A stretch of 32,198 bases of DNA from Thiomargarita sp. (GTDB lineage Bacteria; Pseudomonadota; Gammaproteobacteria; Beggiatoales; Beggiatoaceae), in NCBI GenBank assembly GCA_020720115.1, contig DYPD01000039.1, positions 1 through 32,198 of the forward strand, written 5' to 3'. This document shows, in pieces, positions 2,176-24,842 of this stretch. The notes under the pieces are model-generated. The model worked only from the letters and a program-made list of their open reading frames with translations. It did no database searches and was not told where the DNA came from. A program made the translations under genes and the position numbers. Within the stretch, counting starts at the first letter, position 1; every line of letters begins with the position of its first letter.

Positions 2176-2754
2176 TCAGCCTCCCTGTGTTGGCGGCGTT
2201 GTCTGCGGTGCAGTGCCTTGCACAACTTTGCTAAAACCAGTGACTTTAAGTGTGCCCTGGATACGATTGGCGCTGATCACGCGCACATCCAGACTCACGA
2301 CAGGCAACGCCACCACTTCGTCTTTAATGGATTGCAATAAAGTCATGGTTTGCTCCGAAGTGGCTTCAAACTGTATGCCCTGCGTTACCATCAGCCAGTC
2401 CTGAGTTTCAGTAAATTCGGGCAATTCTAAGGACTGCAAAGCAATCTGCGCCTTAGTTGCCAGGGTGCGCAAAAGGTTTTTCAAACGGGCGCTGACCAGT
2501 TCTTGATTTTCTCCCTGCAAGAGCGCCGTTTCTATCGCCGCTTGCTGCGTTGTTGCACGCTGTTGTTCTTGCTGCCATTTATCACCCTGCTCACTTAAGC
2601 GGTGCAGGCGTTCAACTTCAACAAGCTGTTGCTTTTTCTGTGTCTGATAATGGCTATACCAATCGCTCATGCTTGGTGCAAGACGAAAAGGCACTGCATA
2701 GCCAGCAAAGATGGCTAAAGCAATCCACATTAAACGTTTTTCTGATTGAGTCAT
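2176..2754 (-). CDS. GspM/PilO-like inner-membrane assembly protein
   Basis: The 192-residue protein has one N-terminal transmembrane helix (about residues 8-26), a glutamine-rich coiled coil (about 35-95) and a small C-terminal alpha/beta domain (about 95-178) of PilO/GspM-b type. Such proteins partner the GspL/PilN subunit in the platform that links the cytoplasmic ATPase to the periplasm. The end lies one base before the gspE start and the gspL-like gene is upstream in the same operon, which supports the assignment. Sequence conservation in this family is low, so the call rests on architecture and neighbours. A short Pro/Thr/Gln-rich tail ends the protein. No strong Shine-Dalgarno precedes the ATG. 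Confidence 0.72.
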   Translation of the reverse strand: MTQSEKRLMWIALAIFAGYAVPFRLAPSMSDWYSHYQTQKKQQLVEVERLHRLSEQGDKWQQEQQRATTQQAAIETALLQGENQELVSARLKNLLRTLATKAQIALQSLELPEFTETQDWLMVTQGIQFEATSEQTMTLLQSIKDEVVALPVVSLDVRVISANRIQGTLKVTGFSKVVQGTAPQTTPPTQGG

Positions 2755-2816: not shown

Positions 2817-3452
2817 CTAATAAGTACGGGGTATAAAGCTTGTTTGATTTTCCAAATAGGCGCTGTCACCCGTAGCTTTAATCACAAATAGCCCTTTGTT
2901 TTGCGCCATTTTTTCTGCACCCGCATCGCTAGTTAAATAAGCCATGGCTCCGTACACAGTATTGTCAGCATATTCACGCATCCAGTGTTTAACCTGCGGC
3001 AATTTAGTGAGAAAATCTTTAACATCATCCGGGCGCAATGTGGTTTTAACTTCCACCATAATCACCGCATCACCGTTTTTTGCCACAATATCAATTTCCC
3101 AAGAATTACCCTCATAAGTACCTTTAGCACGGCTATAGGTGTGTTGCACGGGAATACCGCGTTCATTAAACAAACGCACTAAAGCACCTTCAACTAAGGA
3201 TTCAACTAATCTACCCCACTGGCTGGTAAACAGATGTTCTAGCTTATTCAGTTTAATGTCAGTTGCCTTAAACTGTCGGTCGGTTTCTTGAAATTTCCGG
3301 TCAGTATCCTTAAACTGTCGGTCGGTTTCCTGAAACTTACGGTCAGTATCCTGAAATTTACGATCTGTTTCTTGGAATTTACGATCAGTTTCTTTAAATA
3401 AACGCCAGACTTCTTCAAGGGTAGGCAGTTCAGCTTGATTGACGGTGTTCAT
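2817..3452 (-). CDS. PD-(D/E)XK nuclease-like protein with heptad coiled coil (copy A)
   Basis: The 211-residue protein starts with uninterrupted 7-residue repeats of the form KFQETDR (about residues 18-67). A compact domain follows with the PD-(D/E)XK signature WEID...VEVK: D121, E134 and K136. A conserved helix rich in E and R precedes it (WGRLVESLVEGALVRLF). The fold is typical of restriction-like nuclease families (DUF3782-like), which are often of unknown role; no target can be read from the sequence. GGAG lies 9 bases before the ATG. It is nearly identical to the gene at 3502-4074 but has three extra heptads. Both are inserted between gspL-like and gspM-like genes and have no known function in secretion. 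Nuclease activity is inferred from the motif only. Confidence 0.8.
   Translation of the reverse strand: MNTVNQAELPTLEEVWRLFKETDRKFQETDRKFQDTDRKFQETDRQFKDTDRKFQETDRQFKATDIKLNKLEHLFTSQWGRLVESLVEGALVRLFNERGIPVQHTYSRAKGTYEGNSWEIDIVAKNGDAVIMVEVKTTLRPDDVKDFLTKLPQVKHWMREYADNTVYGAMAYLTSDAGAEKMAQNKGLFVIKATGDSAYLENQTSFIPRTY
3270..3395 (-). repeat. 21-bp tandem repeats encoding heptads in copy A
   Basis: Six consecutive 21-bp units encode the 7-residue repeat (K/Q-F-x-x-T-D-R). The units are imperfect, for example AAACTGTCGGTCGGTTTC against AAACTTACGGTCAGTATC. The paralogue has three units at 3955-4017. Whole-unit differences keep both frame and coiled-coil phase, as expected from slippage or recombination between units. 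Confidence 0.85.
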
Positions 3453-3501
3453 AGTCTAAGTCTCCAGCCACTTTGCAATATTCGGTATTAAATCAATTTA
3501 A

Positions 3502-4074
3502 CTAGAAAGTACGGGGCATAAAGCTTGTTTGATTTTCCAAATAGGCGCTGTCACCCGTAGCTTTAATCACAAATAGCCCTTTGTTTTGCGCCATTTTTTC
3601 TGCACCCGCATCGCTAGTTAAATAAGCCATGGCTCCGTACACAGTATTGTCAGCATATTCACGCATCCAGTGTTTAACCTGCGGCAATTTAGTGAGAAAA
3701 TCTTTAACATCATCCGGGCGCAATGTGGTTTTAACTTCCACCATAATCACCGCATCACCGTTTTTTGCCACAATATCAATTTCCCAAGAATTACCCTCAT
3801 AAGTACCTTTAGCACGGCTATAGGTGTGTTGCACGGGAATACCGCGTTCATTAAACAAACGCACTAAAGCACCTTCAACTAAGGATTCAACTAATCTACC
3901 CCACTGGCTGGTAAACAGATGTTCTAGTTTATTCAGTTTAATGTCAGTTGCCTTAAACTGCCGGTCGGTTTCTTGAAACTTACGATCTGTTTCTTGGAAT
4001 TTACGATCAGTTTCTTTAAATAAACGCCAGACTTCTTCGAGGGTAGGCAGTTCAGCTTGATTGGCGGTGTTCAT
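3502..4074 (-). CDS. PD-(D/E)XK nuclease-like protein with heptad coiled coil (copy B)
   Basis: The 190-residue protein is a near-identical paralogue of the next gene downstream. Heptads occupy about residues 18-46, and the nuclease-like core has D100, E113 and K115 (motif WEID...MVEVK). The start is supported by GGAG 8 bases upstream and by exact agreement with the copy A start context (MNT.NQAELPTLEEVWRLF). It lies 33 bp after the gspL-like gene on the same strand, so it is probably co-transcribed with it. The coiled coil may drive dimer formation or hetero-pairing with copy A; that is inference. No function is known to me. Confidence 0.8.
   Translation of the reverse strand: MNTANQAELPTLEEVWRLFKETDRKFQETDRKFQETDRQFKATDIKLNKLEHLFTSQWGRLVESLVEGALVRLFNERGIPVQHTYSRAKGTYEGNSWEIDIVAKNGDAVIMVEVKTTLRPDDVKDFLTKLPQVKHWMREYADNTVYGAMAYLTSDAGAEKMAQNKGLFVIKATGDSAYLENQTSFMPRTF
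3955..4017 (-). repeat. 21-bp tandem repeats encoding heptads in copy B
   Basis: Three 21-bp units encode the heptads of copy B. Its second unit resembles a hybrid of the fourth and fifth units of copy A, so the length difference of exactly 63 bp can be explained by loss (or gain) of three units. Confidence 0.8.
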
Positions 4075-4107: not shown

Positions 4108-5367
4108 TTATTCAGCATTAGCCCGATCAGGAAAGTATTCTTCTAAGTAAGATTTGACATCTACTCCGATGATTTTCATAGAAATACCAAAGCGCTGTCC
4201 ACGAATAGGTTGATTAAAAGCGACTTCAGTAAATAAACCCGCATTGGCTAATGCTTCGAGTATTTTTACTGGTTCAGGACTCTCGCCTTCGATTTCTACT
4301 AATCCACCTTCAATTTTCATACGGGTAATCCAACTGTTTTTGGGTATCAAGTTATTCAAGCTTTGGAGTAACCCTATGACATCTTGTTCTGGGAACAAGG
4401 CGATTGGACCTACGGCATCTTCAATGCTGAATACCGACTGGCGTAGTTTTTCTATCTCGCGGGTTTGTTCGTGCAATTTGGCAATTTCTTGATTTAATTG
4501 GTATTGTTGATACCAAAGCCAAGCCCCCGCGCCTAGCACACTCAAAAAGAGTGTTGCTAAGATGAAGAAAAACCAACGCCAACGCTGTTTGGTTCGTGCT
4601 TTGCGGCGCTGTTGTTCTGCCAGAGGTGCCACAAAACGATAAAAACAAGCGGCGGGATGCGGGTGCGGGCTGTTGTGCCAATCAGCTAGACAGGTTTTGC
4701 GCTGCCACACTGCGCCTGGAGGGCTATCCGCTGCCAGTTTGTTGTCTAATTGCTGGCGAAAGTCTGCTTGTTCATAGTCTAGTTTATCTACCCATAACCA
4801 ATTTTGCAGGCTACCATTTTCAAAGCGGGCATAGGTAATGCCAGAGCTGTCTTCATCATAAAGCTGCTGACAGCCTTCATCTGATTGCAGCAAGGCTAAC
4901 GGGCGCGGCAAGATCAAGCTGAGATTGAGTCCCTGCTGGGCAAAGGCTTGATATAAAGCGTCGGCGCGCTGGGCGGCAAACCAGAGTACTAGATAATGCC
5001 CGTCACTCTGCGGCTGGCTGTGTACGGCTAATAAGAGCGGTGCGGTGTAACCAGGCAGCAACATGGGTTTTTGCAGCAATAAGGCACTGTGTAAATTGTC
5101 GGCGCCAACCCCTGGCAAATGTGCTTGAGTGGCGATAAATTCTTCGCTGGGTAGGCACAGGGCGATATTTTTTTTCACATCGGCGGCGGGCAACAAACGC
5201 CGTGCAGCACCCGCCAAGGCTTCAAGATCGTCTGGGCGCTCAAGCTGATAATGCTGGTCTGAATTTAGCTCAACTAGGCTTTCTTGATATAAAACCAGGC
5301 AATAATCAAGCTTGGGTAAAGTGGGGTATTTGGCAAAACGCGGTTTTGATGAAGGAGTGTTTTTCAT
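4108..5367 (-). CDS. GspL/PilN-like secretion platform protein
   Basis: The 419-residue protein has a cytoplasmic N-terminal region of about 260 residues resembling the actin-like part of GspL (segments ALCLPSEEF and LPGVGADNLHSALLLQ). One transmembrane helix follows at about residues 266-288 after a basic stretch (RRKARTKQRWRW). A coiled coil and a PilN-like periplasmic domain complete it (SLNNLIPKNSWITRMKIEGG, VEIEGESPEP). GspL recruits the ATPase GspE to the inner membrane and pairs with GspM, and both are found downstream in this operon. MshI of MSHA pili has a comparable layout and cannot be excluded. The ATG lacks a clear Shine-Dalgarno and has TATAAT 8 bases upstream. It is the first gene of the operon. 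Confidence 0.78.
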   Translation of the reverse strand: MKNTPSSKPRFAKYPTLPKLDYCLVLYQESLVELNSDQHYQLERPDDLEALAGAARRLLPAADVKKNIALCLPSEEFIATQAHLPGVGADNLHSALLLQKPMLLPGYTAPLLLAVHSQPQSDGHYLVLWFAAQRADALYQAFAQQGLNLSLILPRPLALLQSDEGCQQLYDEDSSGITYARFENGSLQNWLWVDKLDYEQADFRQQLDNKLAADSPPGAVWQRKTCLADWHNSPHPHPAACFYRFVAPLAEQQRRKARTKQRWRWFFFILATLFLSVLGAGAWLWYQQYQLNQEIAKLHEQTREIEKLRQSVFSIEDAVGPIALFPEQDVIGLLQSLNNLIPKNSWITRMKIEGGLVEIEGESPEPVKILEALANAGLFTEVAFNQPIRGQRFGISMKIIGVDVKSYLEEYFPDRANAE

Positions 5368-5626
5368 GCCGTCTATTATACTCTAGGCTTGTTGTTACCG
5401 ATTGCTATTGCAATTTATGTAAGTCATACAACACGCTTTAGACACATAAAAAAAATAGTCTTGTGTCCCTTACTATGTAACAAATTGATGACTTATCTTT
5501 TAAGTTAAGCATCAGGCAAATGGGTAATCAGGAATTAAAAGACGCATTTTAGTTGGCATAAAGCGGGCATTCATGCGTTCCTGGTTTTTGGGGTCGGTTA
5601 TTTGATTCATATTTGAGGAAAATACC
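5368..5626. other. Intergenic region between divergent genes
   Basis: This 259-bp AT-rich spacer separates the minus-strand secretion operon from a plus-strand small ORF. It holds a 6-bp inverted repeat, GACACA (5441-5446) with TGTGTC (5462-5467), around an A-rich loop. A more distant 8-bp inverted pair, TAAGTCAT and ATGACTTA, lies at about 5420 and 5488. No RNA gene or recognised operator was identified. Confidence 0.4.
5375..5380 (-). promoter_or_regulatory. Candidate -10 box immediately upstream of gspL-like ATG
   Basis: On the minus strand a perfect TATAAT lies 7 bases before the ATG at 5367. Transcription starting at the usual distance would begin at or next to the start codon, giving a leaderless or nearly leaderless message. 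No convincing -35 element is found 15-18 bp upstream (for example AATCGG at 17 bp), so this is a weak candidate. Confidence 0.3.
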
Positions 5627-7040: not shown

Positions 7041-8200
7041 GGCGTCACCTGCGTTGCGTCTGAATTTAAGAGGGGTAAGGCTTCATCGCCACCCGTCGCG
7101 GCGCGATTGAGTTGCTCCAATACTGCCAATGCTTTCGAGGTATCCGGTAACTCTGGTTTTAAGGCGATTTTCTGCATTTGCTCCAAATCACTGTGTAGCA
7201 CTGCGACCGCTTTGTTTTGCAGGTCGTAATAACGCTTGAGCCAGCTCAACACTGTGTTGATTTCTAAGCGAAATTGCTCAGTATCACGATTTAGTAGCAG
7301 TAGTCGTGCGGTATTGAACTTGATGCGTAGGTTGTCGGTCAAAAAGCTGCGTTCGGTAGGCGACAACAGCCCCGCGTCGGCGCTGTCGTTGTAGCGAATC
7401 ACCACCAGTTTGCGCATTTCGCCCCAAACAGTGCTGGCGATGTCATACCAGTGATAGAATTGCAGTTTGGCGCTTTCGGCGGTGGTATCCTCGGCGTGTT
7501 GCAAGGGTTTAGCGGTAAAATTGCCCTGCAAGAGTGGCAATGCACCACAGCTTTGCGCATAGCCCGCCAATCGTAGCGCCATGCCTTCAATGTCTGGCGT
7601 TTCTAAGCTTTGCAGATATTGAATGTCTTTTGCCAATTGTTCGCGCACGGGTAAGAACAAAGCGCCAGCACTGTGCAAGCGTTGATCGGCGGCTTGCAGT
7701 GCCTGTAATGCGGCGGATAAATCATTGCCCAAAGAGAGCCGCTGTTGTGCGATGCGCAACAAATAGCCCACTTCAGCAATGCTCCAATCTTCATTATCTC
7801 CGGTGCGACGCAGCTTGTTGTAAAGTTGCGCGTAAGCTTGCTGCAATTGTTGTTGTTCGACTTGCAAGCGGTGGATTTTTTGTTGCCATTCTTGTTGTTG
7901 CGGTTGCAAGGCTTGTAAGTGTTGTTTTAACTCAGCGATTTCTTGCTGCAAGGTTTTGGTGGTTGCATGGTTTTGCTGAGTCTGTACTTGTTGCTGGTTT
8001 TGATTGCTTTGTAATTGCGTCCACAACTGGTAAGCAAAATAACTGCTGCTGCCTGCGATGAGCAGTAGGATCAACAACAGCAACCAGAGCCAGCCGCGTT
8101 TTTTTTTCGCCGCAGGTGGCGGCGGCAAATAGCGGGTTTCTACTGTGTCAGAAGGGGGCGCGTATTGGGTGCTGCTGTCGGGATTGGCGATTTCGCTCAT
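7037..8200 (-). CDS. hemX: HemX-like membrane protein
   Basis: The 387-residue protein has a Pro-rich cytoplasmic leader, one transmembrane helix (about residues 36-58, WLWLLLLILLLIAG) and a long glutamine-rich coiled coil (about 62-125). The HemX domain follows, with the conserved segments VGYLLRIAQQRLSLGNDLSAALQAL and ADQRL. It is often misannotated as uroporphyrinogen-III methyltransferase, but no SAM-binding motif is present. GAGG about 9 bases before the ATG supports the start. It is followed by hemY with a 4-bp overlap. The usual upstream hemC and hemD are absent; nadK is there instead. Confidence 0.9.
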   Translation of the reverse strand: MSEIANPDSSTQYAPPSDTVETRYLPPPPAAKKKRGWLWLLLLILLLIAGSSSYFAYQLWTQLQSNQNQQQVQTQQNHATTKTLQQEIAELKQHLQALQPQQQEWQQKIHRLQVEQQQLQQAYAQLYNKLRRTGDNEDWSIAEVGYLLRIAQQRLSLGNDLSAALQALQAADQRLHSAGALFLPVREQLAKDIQYLQSLETPDIEGMALRLAGYAQSCGALPLLQGNFTAKPLQHAEDTTAESAKLQFYHWYDIASTVWGEMRKLVVIRYNDSADAGLLSPTERSFLTDNLRIKFNTARLLLLNRDTEQFRLEINTVLSWLKRYYDLQNKAVAVLHSDLEQMQKIALKPELPDTSKALAVLEQLNRAATGGDEALPLLNSDATQVTP

Positions 8201-15143: not shown

Positions 15144-15758
15144 ATGGACGCACCAACATTAAGTTTTTTCAATACCTTACTCACTTTTCCAGCAATTCTG
15201 CCAAGTATTTTATTAGGCGTTATTTTGCTCTATTGGTTTTTTGTCATCCTCGGCGCTCTGGATATTGATGTTATTGATTTCGATTTTGGCAAAGAGGGCG
15301 GCGATTTTCTCTATGTTGCTGGCATTTCTGGCATACCTTCCACCATTACCATTAGCTTGCTGATTTTCAATCTGTGGATACTTTGCGTACCCGCCACCTA
15401 CTACTTAGCATTACTATTACCCGCTGGGATTTTACAAATAGTCGTAGGCTTCGGTATATTGCTTATTGCACTCATTATTGCCGCACAATTAACTGTCTGG
15501 TTAGTAAAACCCTGGCGTAGCTTTTTCATTGAACCCGTCCATTCTAACGCCAGCTTGATTGGTAAAGTCTGTATTATTTCCACTGCTACGGTAGATGAAG
15601 AATTTGGACAAGCCAATTATGAAGACGGCGGCGCAGGTTTAATTCTCAATGTGCGCTCAAACACCCCAAATTTTCTTCAACGCAACAGCCGCGCATTAAT
15701 TATTGATTACGATAAAGCCACACACAGCTACACAGTAACAGAATTGGAGGAAATCTGA
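15144..15758 (+). CDS. YqiJ-like (NfeD-type) membrane protein with OB-fold
   Basis: The 204-residue protein has an N-terminal hydrophobic helix (about residues 15-40), two to three further membrane helices (about 68-125) and a soluble C-terminal OB-fold-like domain (about 135-200, NASLIGKVCIISTATVDEEFG). This is the layout of E. coli YqiJ, the NfeD-like partner encoded next to the flotillin YqiK; the flotillin is found here two genes downstream. The stop overlaps the next start (TGATG). No clear Shine-Dalgarno precedes this ATG. NfeD-like proteins are thought to act with flotillins in membrane microdomains. Confidence 0.82.
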   Translation: MDAPTLSFFNTLLTFPAILPSILLGVILLYWFFVILGALDIDVIDFDFGKEGGDFLYVAGISGIPSTITISLLIFNLWILCVPATYYLALLLPAGILQIVVGFGILLIALIIAAQLTVWLVKPWRSFFIEPVHSNASLIGKVCIISTATVDEEFGQANYEDGGAGLILNVRSNTPNFLQRNSRALIIDYDKATHSYTVTELEEI

Positions 15759-17308
15759 TGTCACGTTTTTTTAACACGGCGGGTCCTTGTCAACCTGAAA
15801 TTCATTATCAAATTAATCCATTACCACGCCTTGATGGAGTCAAAGCTTTAATTGATGGACGTCACTTTTTTATTATTCACGCTCCGCGTCAAACGGGTAA
15901 AACAACCTATTTGTACGCACTCATGCGTCAATTAAACAACGAAGGTCAATACACAGCTTTGCAAGTGAATATTCAAGAAGCCGCCAGTGGTGTGGATGCC
16001 CGCGATGCCATGCTGATTGCCGCCAATGCGTTATATAGCCAAGCATCTCGCCACTTACCTGAAAATGAACGTCCCCCAGTCACCAAAAGTTTTGATTGGC
16101 AGCACGAAAACAGCCTGCGCGGTTATTTAGAATTGTGGGCGCGAAACAATCCTAAACCTATCGCTTTATTCATTGATGAAGCAGACTCTTTAATGGATGA
16201 CTTATTTCTAGCATTATTACGTCAATTACGCGCTGGGTTTGAAGCCCGCCCCACAGGATTTCCACAATCCATTGTTTTAGTAGGATTGCGCGATATACGC
16301 GATTATAAAATTCGTATTCGTCCAGAATCCGCCAGCTTAGGTACCGGCTCGCCGTTTAATGTCAAAACGGAATCTTTATTCATGCAGGGTTTTACTGAGC
16401 AAGAAGTCTATGCTCTGTTAGATTTACATACGGCTGAAACTGGGCAAGTATTTGATACTGAGGTTAAACAAGAAATTTGGCGTTTAACCCAAGGACAGCC
16501 TTGGTTGAGCAATGCGTTGGCAAATCAAATTGTTGCTAAAGTGCTGAAAAACGATTTTACACAAAACATCAGGCTTGCCCATGTTGCGCAAGCTAAAGAA
16601 GAACTGATTGAACGCCGCGATACACATTTAGATAGTTTGGTGGATAAATTACGCGAGCCGAGGGTAAAATATATCGCTGAAGCCATTATCAACGGCAGTT
16701 CACCGGATTTTGATCGACTTAATGATGACATTTCTTATTTGCGCGATCTGGGATTGATTGCACCTAAACCGCCAGTGCGATTTGCTAATCCAATCTATCA
16801 AGAAATTATCCCGCGTGTTTTAAGTTATGGGTTTCAAATCAGTTTGCCGCAAGACTATGTAGAACCCCAGTGGTACATCAAAGACGGCAAATTAGATATG
16901 GAAGCTTTGCTTAAAGCCTTTACCAAGTTTTATCGGCGCAATTCTGATGCTTGGCTAGGTAAATATGATTTTCGTGAAGTGGGGCGACAATTACTACTCA
17001 TGGCGTTTTTGCAGCGCATTATTAATTCCGGTGGTCGTATTGAACGGGAAATGGCAGTGGGCAATGGGCGCTGTGATTTATTTATTGAATACGGAACCGA
17101 TCAATTTATCATTGAATTAAAACTCTACCACGATGAATTTAGCCGCGAAGATGGCATTGAACAAGCTGCACGTTATTTGGATAAACTCGGCATGAATAAA
17201 GCCTATTTGATTTTATTTGAAACCCGTCCCGGCATTGCTTGGGAACAGCGTTTGTATCGGGAAGACATTGTACAAGATGGAAAACAGATTGTCCTTTTAG
17301 GAATGTAA
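15758..17308 (+). CDS. AAA_35-like P-loop ATPase fused to a PD-(D/E)XK nuclease-like domain
   Basis: The 516-residue protein begins with the signature RFFNTAGPCQPEIHY of AAA_35-like ATPases. Walker A APRQTGKTT is at residues 42-50 and Walker B ALFIDEAD at 136-143; a winged-helix-like region follows (about 300-370). The C-terminal domain (about 390-516) carries GRCDLFIEYGTDQFIIELKL, a PD-(D/E)XK core with D440, E453 and K455, and a later EQAARYLDKLGMNKAYLI motif. ATPase-nuclease proteins of this kind are common in filamentous sulfur bacteria and cyanobacteria, and their function is unknown. It overlaps the yqiJ-like stop by 1 bp and is followed 37 bp later by the flotillin gene, so it is inside that operon. 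Confidence 0.88.
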   Translation: MSRFFNTAGPCQPEIHYQINPLPRLDGVKALIDGRHFFIIHAPRQTGKTTYLYALMRQLNNEGQYTALQVNIQEAASGVDARDAMLIAANALYSQASRHLPENERPPVTKSFDWQHENSLRGYLELWARNNPKPIALFIDEADSLMDDLFLALLRQLRAGFEARPTGFPQSIVLVGLRDIRDYKIRIRPESASLGTGSPFNVKTESLFMQGFTEQEVYALLDLHTAETGQVFDTEVKQEIWRLTQGQPWLSNALANQIVAKVLKNDFTQNIRLAHVAQAKEELIERRDTHLDSLVDKLREPRVKYIAEAIINGSSPDFDRLNDDISYLRDLGLIAPKPPVRFANPIYQEIIPRVLSYGFQISLPQDYVEPQWYIKDGKLDMEALLKAFTKFYRRNSDAWLGKYDFREVGRQLLLMAFLQRIINSGGRIEREMAVGNGRCDLFIEYGTDQFIIELKLYHDEFSREDGIEQAARYLDKLGMNKAYLILFETRPGIAWEQRLYREDIVQDGKQIVLLGM

Positions 17309-22681: not shown

Positions 22682-23869
22682 ATGTCCAACGGCACAAAAA
22701 TGACCCCATTAGGCAAAACAGTTATTTTTCTCTTCCTCGCCGCCTGCTTTTACGGCGCTTATCATTTCTTCTTCCAAGGTACGAGCACTGCGCCCGGTAC
22801 GCTAGAAGCAACCGGGGGCGGCGCCACAGGTACACAAGTGGAAATCGGCATAGCCTACGGCACAGAAAAACGCCAATGGCTGGAATGGGCAGCAGATGAA
22901 TTTGCCAAAACCCGTGACGGCAAAAGCATTAAAGTCAAGCTGCTGCCAATGGGTTCACTAGAAGGAGCAAACGCCATAGCCGGCGGCGATCAGCGCGTAC
23001 ATGTGTGGTCCCCTGCCAGCAGCCTGTATAAAGAAATATTCATTCAAAATTGGCAAATTGCTTATGGAATGCAAGATCAACCCATTGCTAAAGAAGAAAT
23101 TCTGGCTCTAACCCCAATGGTATTGGTAATGTGGAAAGAACGCTACGAAGCTTTCCAACAAAAATACCCAGAATTAACCTTCCGCACTATTGCCGACGCA
23201 CTGGCAGAAAAAAATGGTTGGGAAGGCATTGCCAACAAACCAGAATGGGGTTTGTTCAAATTCGGACACACCGACCCAACAGAATCCAACAGCGGTTTAT
23301 TAACACTGCTGCTCATGGCTTACGATCACGCGAAAAAATGCCGCGATTTACAGGTCGCAGATACTATCAATTTGGAGTTTCAAAATTGGTTACAGCGTTT
23401 AGAACAAGCCGTCAGCGGTTTATCCAATAGCACAGGCAATCTCATGCGGGAAATGATCCTCAAAGGACCTTCTGCTTATGACGCGCTTTTTGTTTACGAA
23501 AATGTCGCCATTGATTACCTAAAAAGTGCGCAAGGACGCTGGGGCACTTTGCAAGTGGTGTATCCAGTACAAAATATGTGGAACGACAACCCCTACTACA
23601 TTCTCAACACCCCCTGGAGCGACAAAGCACACCAAAACGCTGCTGAAACCTTTCTGGCTTTCTTGCTAAGTGAACCCGTGCAAAAACGCTCATTAGTACA
23701 TGGTTTTCGCCCCGGTGATCCACAAATTCCGGTAAAAACACCCGACAGCCCTTTTAATCAATACGCACAATATGGACTCAAGGTAGATATTCCTCAAACC
23801 TGCGCTTCTCCCAGTCCAGAAGTTATCAACAATTTACTCAGCAGTTGGCAGCGTGCCCGCACTCATTAA
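22682..23869 (+). CDS. Membrane-anchored extracellular solute-binding protein
   Basis: The 395-residue protein has an N-terminal hydrophobic segment (about residues 12-30) ending in a possible lipobox (LAAC, C22), then a Gly/Thr linker and a periplasmic-binding-protein domain of the SBP_bac_11/family 1 type. Supporting segments are IAYGTEKRQWLEWAADEF, GDQRVHVWSPASSLY, FGHTDPTESNSGLLTLLL and GPSAYDALFVYENVAIDYL. I start at the ATG at 22682, preceded by AGAGG, not at an upstream TTG. No permease or ATPase gene is adjacent, so it is an orphan binding protein; its ligand is unknown. Similar domains occur fused to VWA domains in related bacteria. Confidence 0.85.
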   Translation: MSNGTKMTPLGKTVIFLFLAACFYGAYHFFFQGTSTAPGTLEATGGGATGTQVEIGIAYGTEKRQWLEWAADEFAKTRDGKSIKVKLLPMGSLEGANAIAGGDQRVHVWSPASSLYKEIFIQNWQIAYGMQDQPIAKEEILALTPMVLVMWKERYEAFQQKYPELTFRTIADALAEKNGWEGIANKPEWGLFKFGHTDPTESNSGLLTLLLMAYDHAKKCRDLQVADTINLEFQNWLQRLEQAVSGLSNSTGNLMREMILKGPSAYDALFVYENVAIDYLKSAQGRWGTLQVVYPVQNMWNDNPYYILNTPWSDKAHQNAAETFLAFLLSEPVQKRSLVHGFRPGDPQIPVKTPDSPFNQYAQYGLKVDIPQTCASPSPEVINNLLSSWQRARTH

Positions 23870-23930
23870 TCAATACTGGATTCTTTGCAAGGTGATAAAT
23901 CAAACCAAAAAAGCGCTTTGGAGATTTTTT

Positions 23931-24842
23931 ATGCACGACTATGAAGAACGCATTGATGATATCGAAGTCATGTTAGGACGCATGATTATTGAAAACGACA
24001 AAGCACAGCGCCGCCAGGAAAAAACCCTGGCAGCCCTGGAAGCTTCAATTGACCGCTATGAAAAACAGGCGGAAAAACGCGCCGAATTAGAGCGGAAAGC
24101 ATTAGAAGAATGGCGCAAAACCTGGGAAAAAACCCAACAGGAAGAACGCCAGAATTGGCAAGAAAGACAACAGACAGATCAACTAAACTGGGCAAGAAAG
24201 CAAACGGAAGAGTACAAAAGCTGGAAAGAACAGCAAAACCAAGCACATCAGGAATGGATGCAAAAACACCAAGAAGAACAGCGTTCTTGGAAGGAAACAC
24301 AAAAAGAAGTGCATCGAGAGTGGGTAAAACAACAAGAAGAAGTGCATCAGCAGTGGGCTGCGAAATGGGCAGTAGAACGCAAAGCAGAACAACAGGCTTG
24401 GAATAAACGTTGGGGAGAACTCTCGGATAAAATGGGCACTTTTGTTGAAGACATAGTAGCGCCTAATATTCCGCGCATTGCCAAACAACTCTTTGATTGC
24501 GAAGAAATAGATGACTTTATGGTACGACGTACCGTGCGCAACAAAAAAGACCCCAGCAAGCGACGCGAATTTGATGTGATTGCTGTGTGCGGTGATAAAG
24601 TTTTGCTAAATGAAACCAAATCCAGTATTCGCCTTGAATACATAGATCGTTTTATTGAAATCTTACCGCAACTGCCTGATTATTTTCCTGAATATGCAAA
24701 TAAAACCCTAGTGCCGGTGTTTTCTTCATTGGGTATATCTCAGGATATAGTCAACTACCTCAGCAAGCATCGTATTTACGCATTAGCAATGGGTGATGAA
24801 AACATGCAGTTGCTCAATCAATCTTCAGTAGAAAACTATTGA
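23931..24842 (+). CDS. PD-(D/E)XK nuclease-like protein with tryptophan 11-residue repeats
   Basis: The 303-residue protein has an N-terminal coiled coil (residues about 1-165) and a C-terminal nuclease-like domain with the core REFDVIAVCGDKVLLNETKS: D215, E228 and K230. In the coil, tryptophan recurs every 11 residues at 65, 76, 87, 98, 109, 120, 131 and 142, with extra ones at 61, 146, 157 and 161. The domain is related in motif spacing to the heptad-coil proteins near 3-4 kb. GGAG 7 bases before the ATG at 23931 supports the start over an earlier in-frame one. It lies 61 bp after the binding protein and 18 bp before a membrane coiled-coil gene, ahead of smpB. Nuclease activity is inferred from motif only. 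Confidence 0.82.
   Translation: MHDYEERIDDIEVMLGRMIIENDKAQRRQEKTLAALEASIDRYEKQAEKRAELERKALEEWRKTWEKTQQEERQNWQERQQTDQLNWARKQTEEYKSWKEQQNQAHQEWMQKHQEEQRSWKETQKEVHREWVKQQEEVHQQWAAKWAVERKAEQQAWNKRWGELSDKMGTFVEDIVAPNIPRIAKQLFDCEEIDDFMVRRTVRNKKDPSKRREFDVIAVCGDKVLLNETKSSIRLEYIDRFIEILPQLPDYFPEYANKTLVPVFSSLGISQDIVNYLSKHRIYALAMGDENMQLLNQSSVENY

What the first reader, a model, noticed from the sequence alone, without database searches (positions are those of the whole stretch)
2817..4074. Recent tandem duplication of a nuclease-like gene inside a secretion operon
Two PD-(D/E)XK/coiled-coil genes with only a handful of base differences across their nuclease domains sit between the gspL-like and gspM-like genes. 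These normally lie close together because their products form one complex. Such identity means a very recent duplication or ongoing gene conversion. The insertion position suggests either a neutral landing site or a link to the secretion platform.
Basis: seen in the sequence. Interest (0 to 1): 0.6.

Follow-up and report, generated by a model that had tools for sequence, protein, structure and literature searches.

The report
Gene-converted twin coiled-coil nuclease genes
Two neighbouring genes for a small DNA-cutting-type enzyme share an identical catalytic half but have stalks of different length, and similar twins and triplets occur in other bacteria, hinting that stalk length may matter.

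Summary
Two co-directional genes (nuc1 2817-3452, nuc2 3502-4074, minus strand) lie between gspL and gspM. Over 573 shared bases they differ at 8 sites; 410 consecutive nuclease bases are identical. nuc1 has three extra 7-residue stalk repeats. The spacers beside the genes are unlike, so an older tandem pair homogenised by gene conversion fits better than a fresh duplication. Both encode a predicted helical stalk plus a PD-(D/E)XK domain with conserved active-site residues; fold relatives are NucS/EndoMS and Can2 (Z about 10).

The pattern recurs. In 17 pairs from 15 clusters in two phyla, nuclease domains are alike and the part before them differs in length in all 17. Three clusters lie on contigs of 4-5 Mb. 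dN/dS is at most 0.27 in 15 of 16 computable pairs.

The secretion operon is probably a permissive landing site: of 23 relatives read around gspL, only one (G021) shows a family gene there, reversed. Function is inferred, not shown: most likely a nuclease whose stalk length sets its oligomer partner, as repeat number does in Rpn toxins. I found no description of such arrays for this family in the papers I could search.

The parts
4108..5367 (-). gspL-like gene (upstream neighbour in transcription)
   Evidence: TIGR01709 E 3e-11, below its curated cut-off; Pfam PilN above cut-off
3502..4074 (-). nuc2: 190-aa stalk + PD-(D/E)XK protein, shorter stalk
   Evidence: ORF; PD-(D/E)XK residues conserved
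3968..4020 (-). nuc2 heptad-coding 21-bp repeats (2.5 units)
   Evidence: Tandem Repeats Finder
3518..3927 (-). 410-nt tract identical to nuc1, presumed conversion tract
   Evidence: difference positions, converted to window coordinates
3453..3501 (.). 49-nt spacer between the copies; weak likeness to the gspL 3' end (41 of 2000 shuffles reach the score)
2817..3452 (-). nuc1: 211-aa stalk + PD-(D/E)XK protein, three more heptads
   Evidence: ORF; AF2 model mean pLDDT 80.7; fold matches
3258..3399 (-). nuc1 heptad-coding 21-bp repeats (6.8 units)
   Evidence: Tandem Repeats Finder
2833..3242 (-). 410-nt tract identical to nuc2
2176..2754 (-). gspM-like gene (downstream neighbour)
   Evidence: NF040576 E 5.9e-13, below its curated cut-off

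Best explanation
nuc1 and nuc2 are tandem paralogues of a multi-copy family of small proteins with an N-terminal helical stalk of about 7-residue repeats and a C-terminal PD-(D/E)XK phosphodiesterase domain. Shown: the two copies, the identical tract, the stalk difference, gspL-gspM without the gene in the same-genus genome, recurrence of such pairs elsewhere, and a pattern of changes in most pairs that fits purifying selection on the nuclease. Inferred: an ancestral copy landed between gspL and gspM, duplicated, and its nuclease part was later homogenised by gene conversion, while the in-frame 21-bp stalk repeats gained and lost units. Inferred with less certainty: the stalk forms a coiled-coil oligomer, its length limits which copies assemble together, and the nuclease acts on nucleic acid as a defence-like or toxin-like effector. 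The secretion operon is a permissive, probably co-transcribed site rather than a partner.
For: 410 identical bases with clustered differences. Unlike flanks. gspL-gspM without the gene in G001; no family gene around gspL in 22 of 23 relatives. A second copy in this genome sits between dprA and smg, which have no family gene between them in G001, G016, G007, G011 and G003, 5 of the 8 genomes searched. 17 pairs from 15 clusters: the N-terminal part differs in length in 17 of 17, with the largest gap a multiple of 7 aa in 12 of 17; dN/dS at most 0.27 in 15 of 16 computable pairs. Tract test p < 0.05, uncorrected, in 10 of 17. In 80 named loci, family ORFs have close tandem homologues more often than neighbouring ORFs, 9 of 90 against 4 of 430, p 3.8e-5 (see for a version that failed). 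PD-(D/E)XK fold: Z 10.7 to NucS 2vld, 10.5 to EndoMS, 10.0 to Can2; D and ExK residues invariant in 40 sequences. Arrays on contigs of 4.8, 4.2 and 5.0 Mb: G003, G011, G288.
Against: Stalk alignments are ambiguous because of the repeats, which can inflate N-terminal differences and the tract test; 7 of 17 pairs show no significant tract. In G022, third-position divergence is higher in the nuclease (41 of 142) than in the N part (12 of 82), so homogenisation is patchy rather than a rule. Of 3 dispersed pairs tested the same way, only 1 differs in stalk length. The window pair's own dN/dS (0.27) rests on four changes and one pair, L170 c1/c2, gives 0.65. G021 does have a family gene fragment next to gspL. 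The stalk helix is predicted with low confidence. No activity, oligomer state or phenotype is known. Stalk-length change may be plain repeat slippage with no function. The window's genome is a 185-contig assembly.
Confidence: 0.6

Rival explanations
1. A very recent simple tandem duplication without conversion; the few differences arose afterwards.
For: dS in the nuclease part is only 0.022; other arrays in the family carry duplicated spacers, as simple tandem duplication predicts.
Against: The spacer and flanks of this pair are unlike, while 410 coding bases are identical; differences cluster at both gene ends.
Confidence: 0.2
2. Assembly artefact: short reads from two similar loci merged or copied in the assembly.
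For: 185 contigs; 5 of 11 family loci in this genome (my count) lie within 250 nt of a contig end against 2.4% expected, so these repeats do break the assembly; the 410-nt identical tract may exceed the read length (read length not known to me).
Against: The copies differ in stalk, both gene ends and spacer; similar layouts occur on contigs of 4-5 Mb in other genomes.
Confidence: 0.07
3. The pair is functionally tied to the type II secretion platform.
For: Same strand and short gaps suggest co-transcription; G021 also has the 3' part of a family gene next to gspL, though convergent and at a contig end.
Against: No family gene in the stretch read around gspL in 22 of 23 relatives; a paralogue in this genome sits beside unrelated genes, dprA and smg.
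Confidence: 0.05
4. A self-spreading gene: the nuclease promotes its own copying and conversion, like a homing gene.
For: Multi-copy and scattered; near-identical arrays in two genera with unlike flanks; in this genome the dispersed copies C93/C121 and C93/C8 share the gene plus about 15 nt upstream but not wider flanks.
Against: C121 and C8 share more, about 107 nt upstream and a further 98-nt block, so the unit is not fixed; no defined ends were seen in the flanks compared, and no systematic search for target duplications was made; no family match in the plasmid, phage or viral collections; ordinary recombination and transfer suffice.
Confidence: 0.08

Closest known systems
Rpn (recombination-promoting nuclease) proteins, PDDEXK_2 / YhgA-like
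   Same: PD-(D/E)XK; variable number of short helical repeats; tandem arrays by direct duplication; no evidence of autonomous transposition (passages of the preprint PMC10327210)
   Different: Not matched by the PDDEXK_2 model at E up to 1; repeats are 7 aa and N-terminal, not 4 aa and C-terminal; no intragenic small protein shown
Coiled-coil-stalk PD-(D/E)XK endonucleases with Pfam DUF3782 (Hartmann et al. 2016, PMC4786415, passages; first author recalled)
   Same: N-terminal heptad stalk plus PD-(D/E)XK domain; two relatives score just under the DUF3782 cut-off
   Different: The window copies do not match DUF3782 at E up to 1; arrays of the genes are not mentioned in the passages I saw ('duplicat' occurs 0 times in the main text)
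Fungal Spok spore killers (PMC6660238, passages)
   Same: N-terminal coiled coil with varying repeat number plus PD-(D/E)XK domain; the authors suggest repeat length may bear on mutual resistance
   Different: Spok has a cysteine cluster and a kinase domain; fungal; no sequence comparison made here
Can2/Card1 CRISPR ancillary nucleases and NucS/EndoMS
   Same: Nuclease fold (Z 8.9-10.7); weak PADLOC CARF_PDDEXK hit (E 2.4e-6)
   Different: The model shows only a stalk helix and one nuclease domain, so no CARF or NucS N-terminal domain

Membership tests
PD-(D/E)XK superfamily | Fold | tested here: met
   VIA Z 10.7 / 10.5 / 10.3 / 10.0 to 2vld, 5gke, 1y88, 8bao over residues about 58-210
PD-(D/E)XK superfamily | Catalytic D...ExK residues | tested here: met
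   D121, E134, K136 (nuc1 numbering) invariant in 40 sequences; that these are the catalytic ones is from knowledge of the fold
PD-(D/E)XK superfamily | Nuclease activity | not testable with these tools
   -
DUF3782 stalk endonucleases | Pfam DUF3782 gathering score | tested here: not met
   No DUF3782 match for either window copy at E up to 1; relatives L193 and L114 at 19.4 and 21.8 bits against 24.4
DUF3782 stalk endonucleases | N-terminal heptad helix joined to PD-(D/E)XK | tested here: met
   Predicted helix 12-70 at low to middling confidence, then the nuclease domain; 21-bp repeats
Rpn | PDDEXK_2 (PF12784) match | tested here: not met
   Not listed for either window copy at E up to 1; two true PDDEXK_2 genes score 174 and 213 bits
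Rpn | C-terminal 4-aa repeats and intragenic antitoxin | tested here: inconclusive
   Repeats are N-terminal 7-aa units; internal starts were not tested systematically
Can2/Card1 | CARF sensor domain | tested here: not met
   211 aa with one stalk helix and one nuclease domain; no CARF model in Pfam at E up to 1
Spok | Kinase domain | tested here: not met
   No room in 190-211 aa; none in Pfam at E up to 1

The most novel reading that the evidence does not exclude
Stalk length is a compatibility code: arrays keep one catalytic domain uniform by conversion and diversify only the coiled-coil length, so each copy pairs with itself or with a matching partner. This would be a bacterial self/non-self or toxin-immunity series built on repeat number, convergent with Rpn and Spok.
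Probability: 0.15. Interest if true: 0.8.

Novelty: new variant of a known kind. Interest (0 to 1): 0.5.

Why it matters
PD-(D/E)XK proteins with repeat-length variation already include a phage-defence toxin family (Rpn) and a fungal gene driver (Spok). A third group, widespread and with natural same-nuclease, different-stalk pairs sitting side by side, gives ready-made pairs for testing whether repeat number encodes partner choice. It also suggests that such copies are undercounted in fragmented assemblies.

Tried and rejected
Plasmid, phage and viral origin: no match to nuc2 at E up to 1e-3 in 72,556 plasmid or 50,697 phage records; in the viral scan with A2, 206 stretches matched a pattern and none was confirmed.

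Spacer origin: the 49-nt spacer resembles the gspL 3' end only weakly (41 of 2000 shuffles), and the other five flank comparisons did not pass (511, 882, 1556, 762 and 954 of 2000). The G001 gap is too diverged to map the insertion point.

RpnS-like small C-terminal genes: G288 has two 59-aa C-terminal ORFs, but each directly follows the same short repeat-like sequence, and pieces elsewhere look like debris, cut ends or chimeras. I do not claim an antitoxin.

Tract test: 7 of 17 pairs are not significant, and p values are uncorrected. On the protein-guided alignment the window pair has 9 third-position differences, more than the 8 substitutions of the DNA alignment, because the stalk repeats can be aligned in more than one way.

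Control for tandem excess: the first version gave 2 of 84 against 4 of 530, p 0.19, because its longest-ORF rule discarded family ORFs. The second keeps family ORFs by force and takes other ORFs only from 150 aa, so it favours the family somewhat. A tandem pair adds two ORFs to the count; by pairs it is 5 against 2, and 4 of 80 loci hold a family pair.

Independence of the 15 clusters: L162 and L170 come from one genome, and the arrays of G012 and G024 are nearly identical copies, so there are fewer than 15 independent events. In several pairs I chose the start codon myself (G022, G024, G056, L162, L190, L211).

Rows left out of the 17 pairs: third copies cut by contig or locus ends (G024, L162), the non-adjacent G003 pair c3/c1, L195 (second copy cut at 79 aa), L147, L193 and L199 (neighbours from different subfamilies), the divergent fourth family ORF of G003, the G288 fragments. 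In one search, 9 of 80 named loci held two or more family ORFs.

Fold search: a family absent from the VIA list is not excluded by that. Papers: searches; only PMC4786415, PMC10327210 and PMC6660238 were opened, as passages; nothing seen describes arrays for this family, but most subscription papers are not held.

Full report
What is there. On the minus strand the order is gspL-like (4108-5367), nuc2 (3502-4074, 190 aa), nuc1 (2817-3452, 211 aa), gspM-like (2176-2754), then a gspE-like gene (723-2225; name by eye). nuc1 and nuc2 differ at 8 of 573 aligned coding positions and by one 63-bp insertion, equal to three 21-bp/7-aa repeats, in the stalk of nuc1. The central 410 bases, covering nearly all of the nuclease domain, are identical. 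The third-position run test gives 136 of 190 codons, p 0.0002. The sequence upstream of each start and downstream of each stop is unlike. dS over the last 142 codons is 0.022.

What the proteins are. Pfam and NCBIfam give only sub-threshold matches, among them DUF234, Hjc, UPF0102, PDDEXK_10 and YraN, several of which are PD-(D/E)XK families (that reading of the names is recalled). AlphaFold2 on a 40-sequence alignment of window and named-genome proteins gives a long helix (residues 12-70, block pLDDT about 50-72) and a confident alpha/beta domain (block pLDDT 90 or more from residue 81). Foldseek and VIA place that domain with PD-(D/E)XK enzymes: NucS 2vld Z 10.7, EndoMS 5gke 10.5, AF1548 1y88 10.3, Can2 8bao 10.0, Card1 6wxw 8.9. 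D121, E134 and K136 are invariant in all 40, so both copies look catalytically intact.

Why conversion rather than a fresh duplication. A fresh tandem duplicate should carry its spacer; in G011, G012 and G024 sequence beside the copies is shared between them. Here it is not, yet 410 coding bases are identical. The 49-nt spacer has a weak likeness to the gspL 3' end (41 of 2000 shuffles), which would fit an old tandem unit that included it. Two dispersed copies in this genome, C93 and C8, have 68 codons in a row with identical third positions inside otherwise diverged sequence (p 0.0002), so exchange may reach dispersed copies too; two other dispersed pairs show no significant run (G040 p 0.82, C93/C121 p 0.18).

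The genomic setting. The same-genus genome G001 has gspL, a 137-nt gap and gspM, with no nuc gene. Its own family gene lies on a contig of the same length as a record titled 'Thiotrichales bacterium isolate BB31', which is my ground for that name. Of 23 relatives read around gspL (mostly 1.5 kb each side; L037 has 34 nt after gspL), 4 have a recognisable gspM next to gspL. The family profile finds a relative in 1 of the 23, G021, where the 3' part of a family gene lies convergent beyond gspL at a contig end. The C122 paralogue sits as dprA-nuc-Uma2-like-smg-topA (gene names by eye), whereas dprA and smg have no family gene between them in G001, G016, G007, G011 and G003, 5 of 8 genomes searched; G012 is similar but smg matched only in part, and G019 and G022 gave no smg in the stretch read. 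A permissive landing site is the simplest reading.

The wider pattern. A profile search found the family in 34 of 42 genomes of the same family, this genome included, and in 17 of 369 drawn from the class, 4 of them from the same family. I compared 17 pairs from 15 clusters: this window, G022, G024, G012, G009, G011, G003 (two pairs), G056, G288, G271, L149, L162, L170 (two pairs), L190 and L211. L149's copies are 3.8 kb apart. They fall in two phyla, Pseudomonadota and Acidobacteriota. The part before the nuclease domain differs in length in all 17, with the largest gap a multiple of 7 aa in 12; of three dispersed pairs only one differs. In L190 the nuclease parts are identical over 435 bases while stalks differ by 7 aa. 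dN/dS is computable for 16 pairs: 15 lie at 0.00-0.27 and one (L170 c1/c2) at 0.65. This fits selection on both copies, though conversion also lowers it. G003, G011 and G288 lie on contigs of 4.8, 4.2 and 5.0 Mb, so the pattern is not only an assembly effect. Close tandem homologues are commoner for family ORFs (9 of 90) than for neighbours (4 of 430, p 3.8e-5); a first version of this control was not significant (2 of 84 against 4 of 530, p 0.19) because it dropped family ORFs.

Movement. The arrays of G024 and G012, different genera, share copies with 6 mismatches in 570 nt but unlike flanks. The C66 paralogue matches G005, another genus, at 87% DNA over 665 columns, while GspL of the two genomes is only about 37-40% identical. 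Both point to horizontal transfer. No plasmid, phage or viral match was found.

Mechanism. The best-supported reading is an effector-type nuclease held on a coiled-coil oligomer, with the catalytic part kept uniform by purifying selection and, in some arrays, conversion, and the stalk free to change by 21-bp steps. In Rpn proteins, adding one repeat to one partner abolishes inhibition, and adding it to both restores it (passages, preprint PMC10327210). For Spok the authors suggest repeat length may matter for resistance (passages, PMC6660238). By analogy, stalk length may choose partners here. That step is inference; slippage without function would give the same sequences.

Novelty. Stalked PD-(D/E)XK endonucleases are in print (PMC4786415, passages). 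I found no description of their arrays or of stalk-length variation between otherwise uniform copies in searches, within an incomplete library.

Noticed in passing
window 23853-24842 (+): A further stalk + nuclease-like protein (329 aa) with a different, long W/E/Q-rich stalk; matches profile A1 at E 7e-23. By eye it resembles a gene on C105 and a triplet in G003.
   Followed up: partly
G000 contigs C93, C8, C95, C29, C74: 5 of 11 family loci in this genome lie within 250 nt of a contig end (2.4% expected, p 3.2e-6), so copies may be undercounted. C93 and C121 also start with the same 69 bases (98.6%).
   Followed up: partly
L117 (G288:C1): Cluster mixing Rpn-type PDDEXK_2 genes, stalked nuclease genes, a Uma2-like gene (by eye) and short GC-rich repeats; two 59-aa C-terminal pieces each follow the same repeat.
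   Followed up: partly
L102 (G009:C315), 28 and 652: A short repeat-like motif (AGCGTGGGAATG) precedes each of the two copies.
   Followed up: no
L149 (Chromatium okenii), 663-1196 and 4986-5528: Two copies with near-identical nuclease parts but different N-termini, as if the stalk were a recombination joint.
   Followed up: no
window 15758-17308 (+): Looks like an AAA-type ATPase with a possible C-terminal nuclease-like segment; judged by eye only.
   Followed up: no
L109 (G000:C66) about 7490-8160: A protein that looks like a TIR domain lies near the 80%-identical paralogue; judged by eye only.
   Followed up: no
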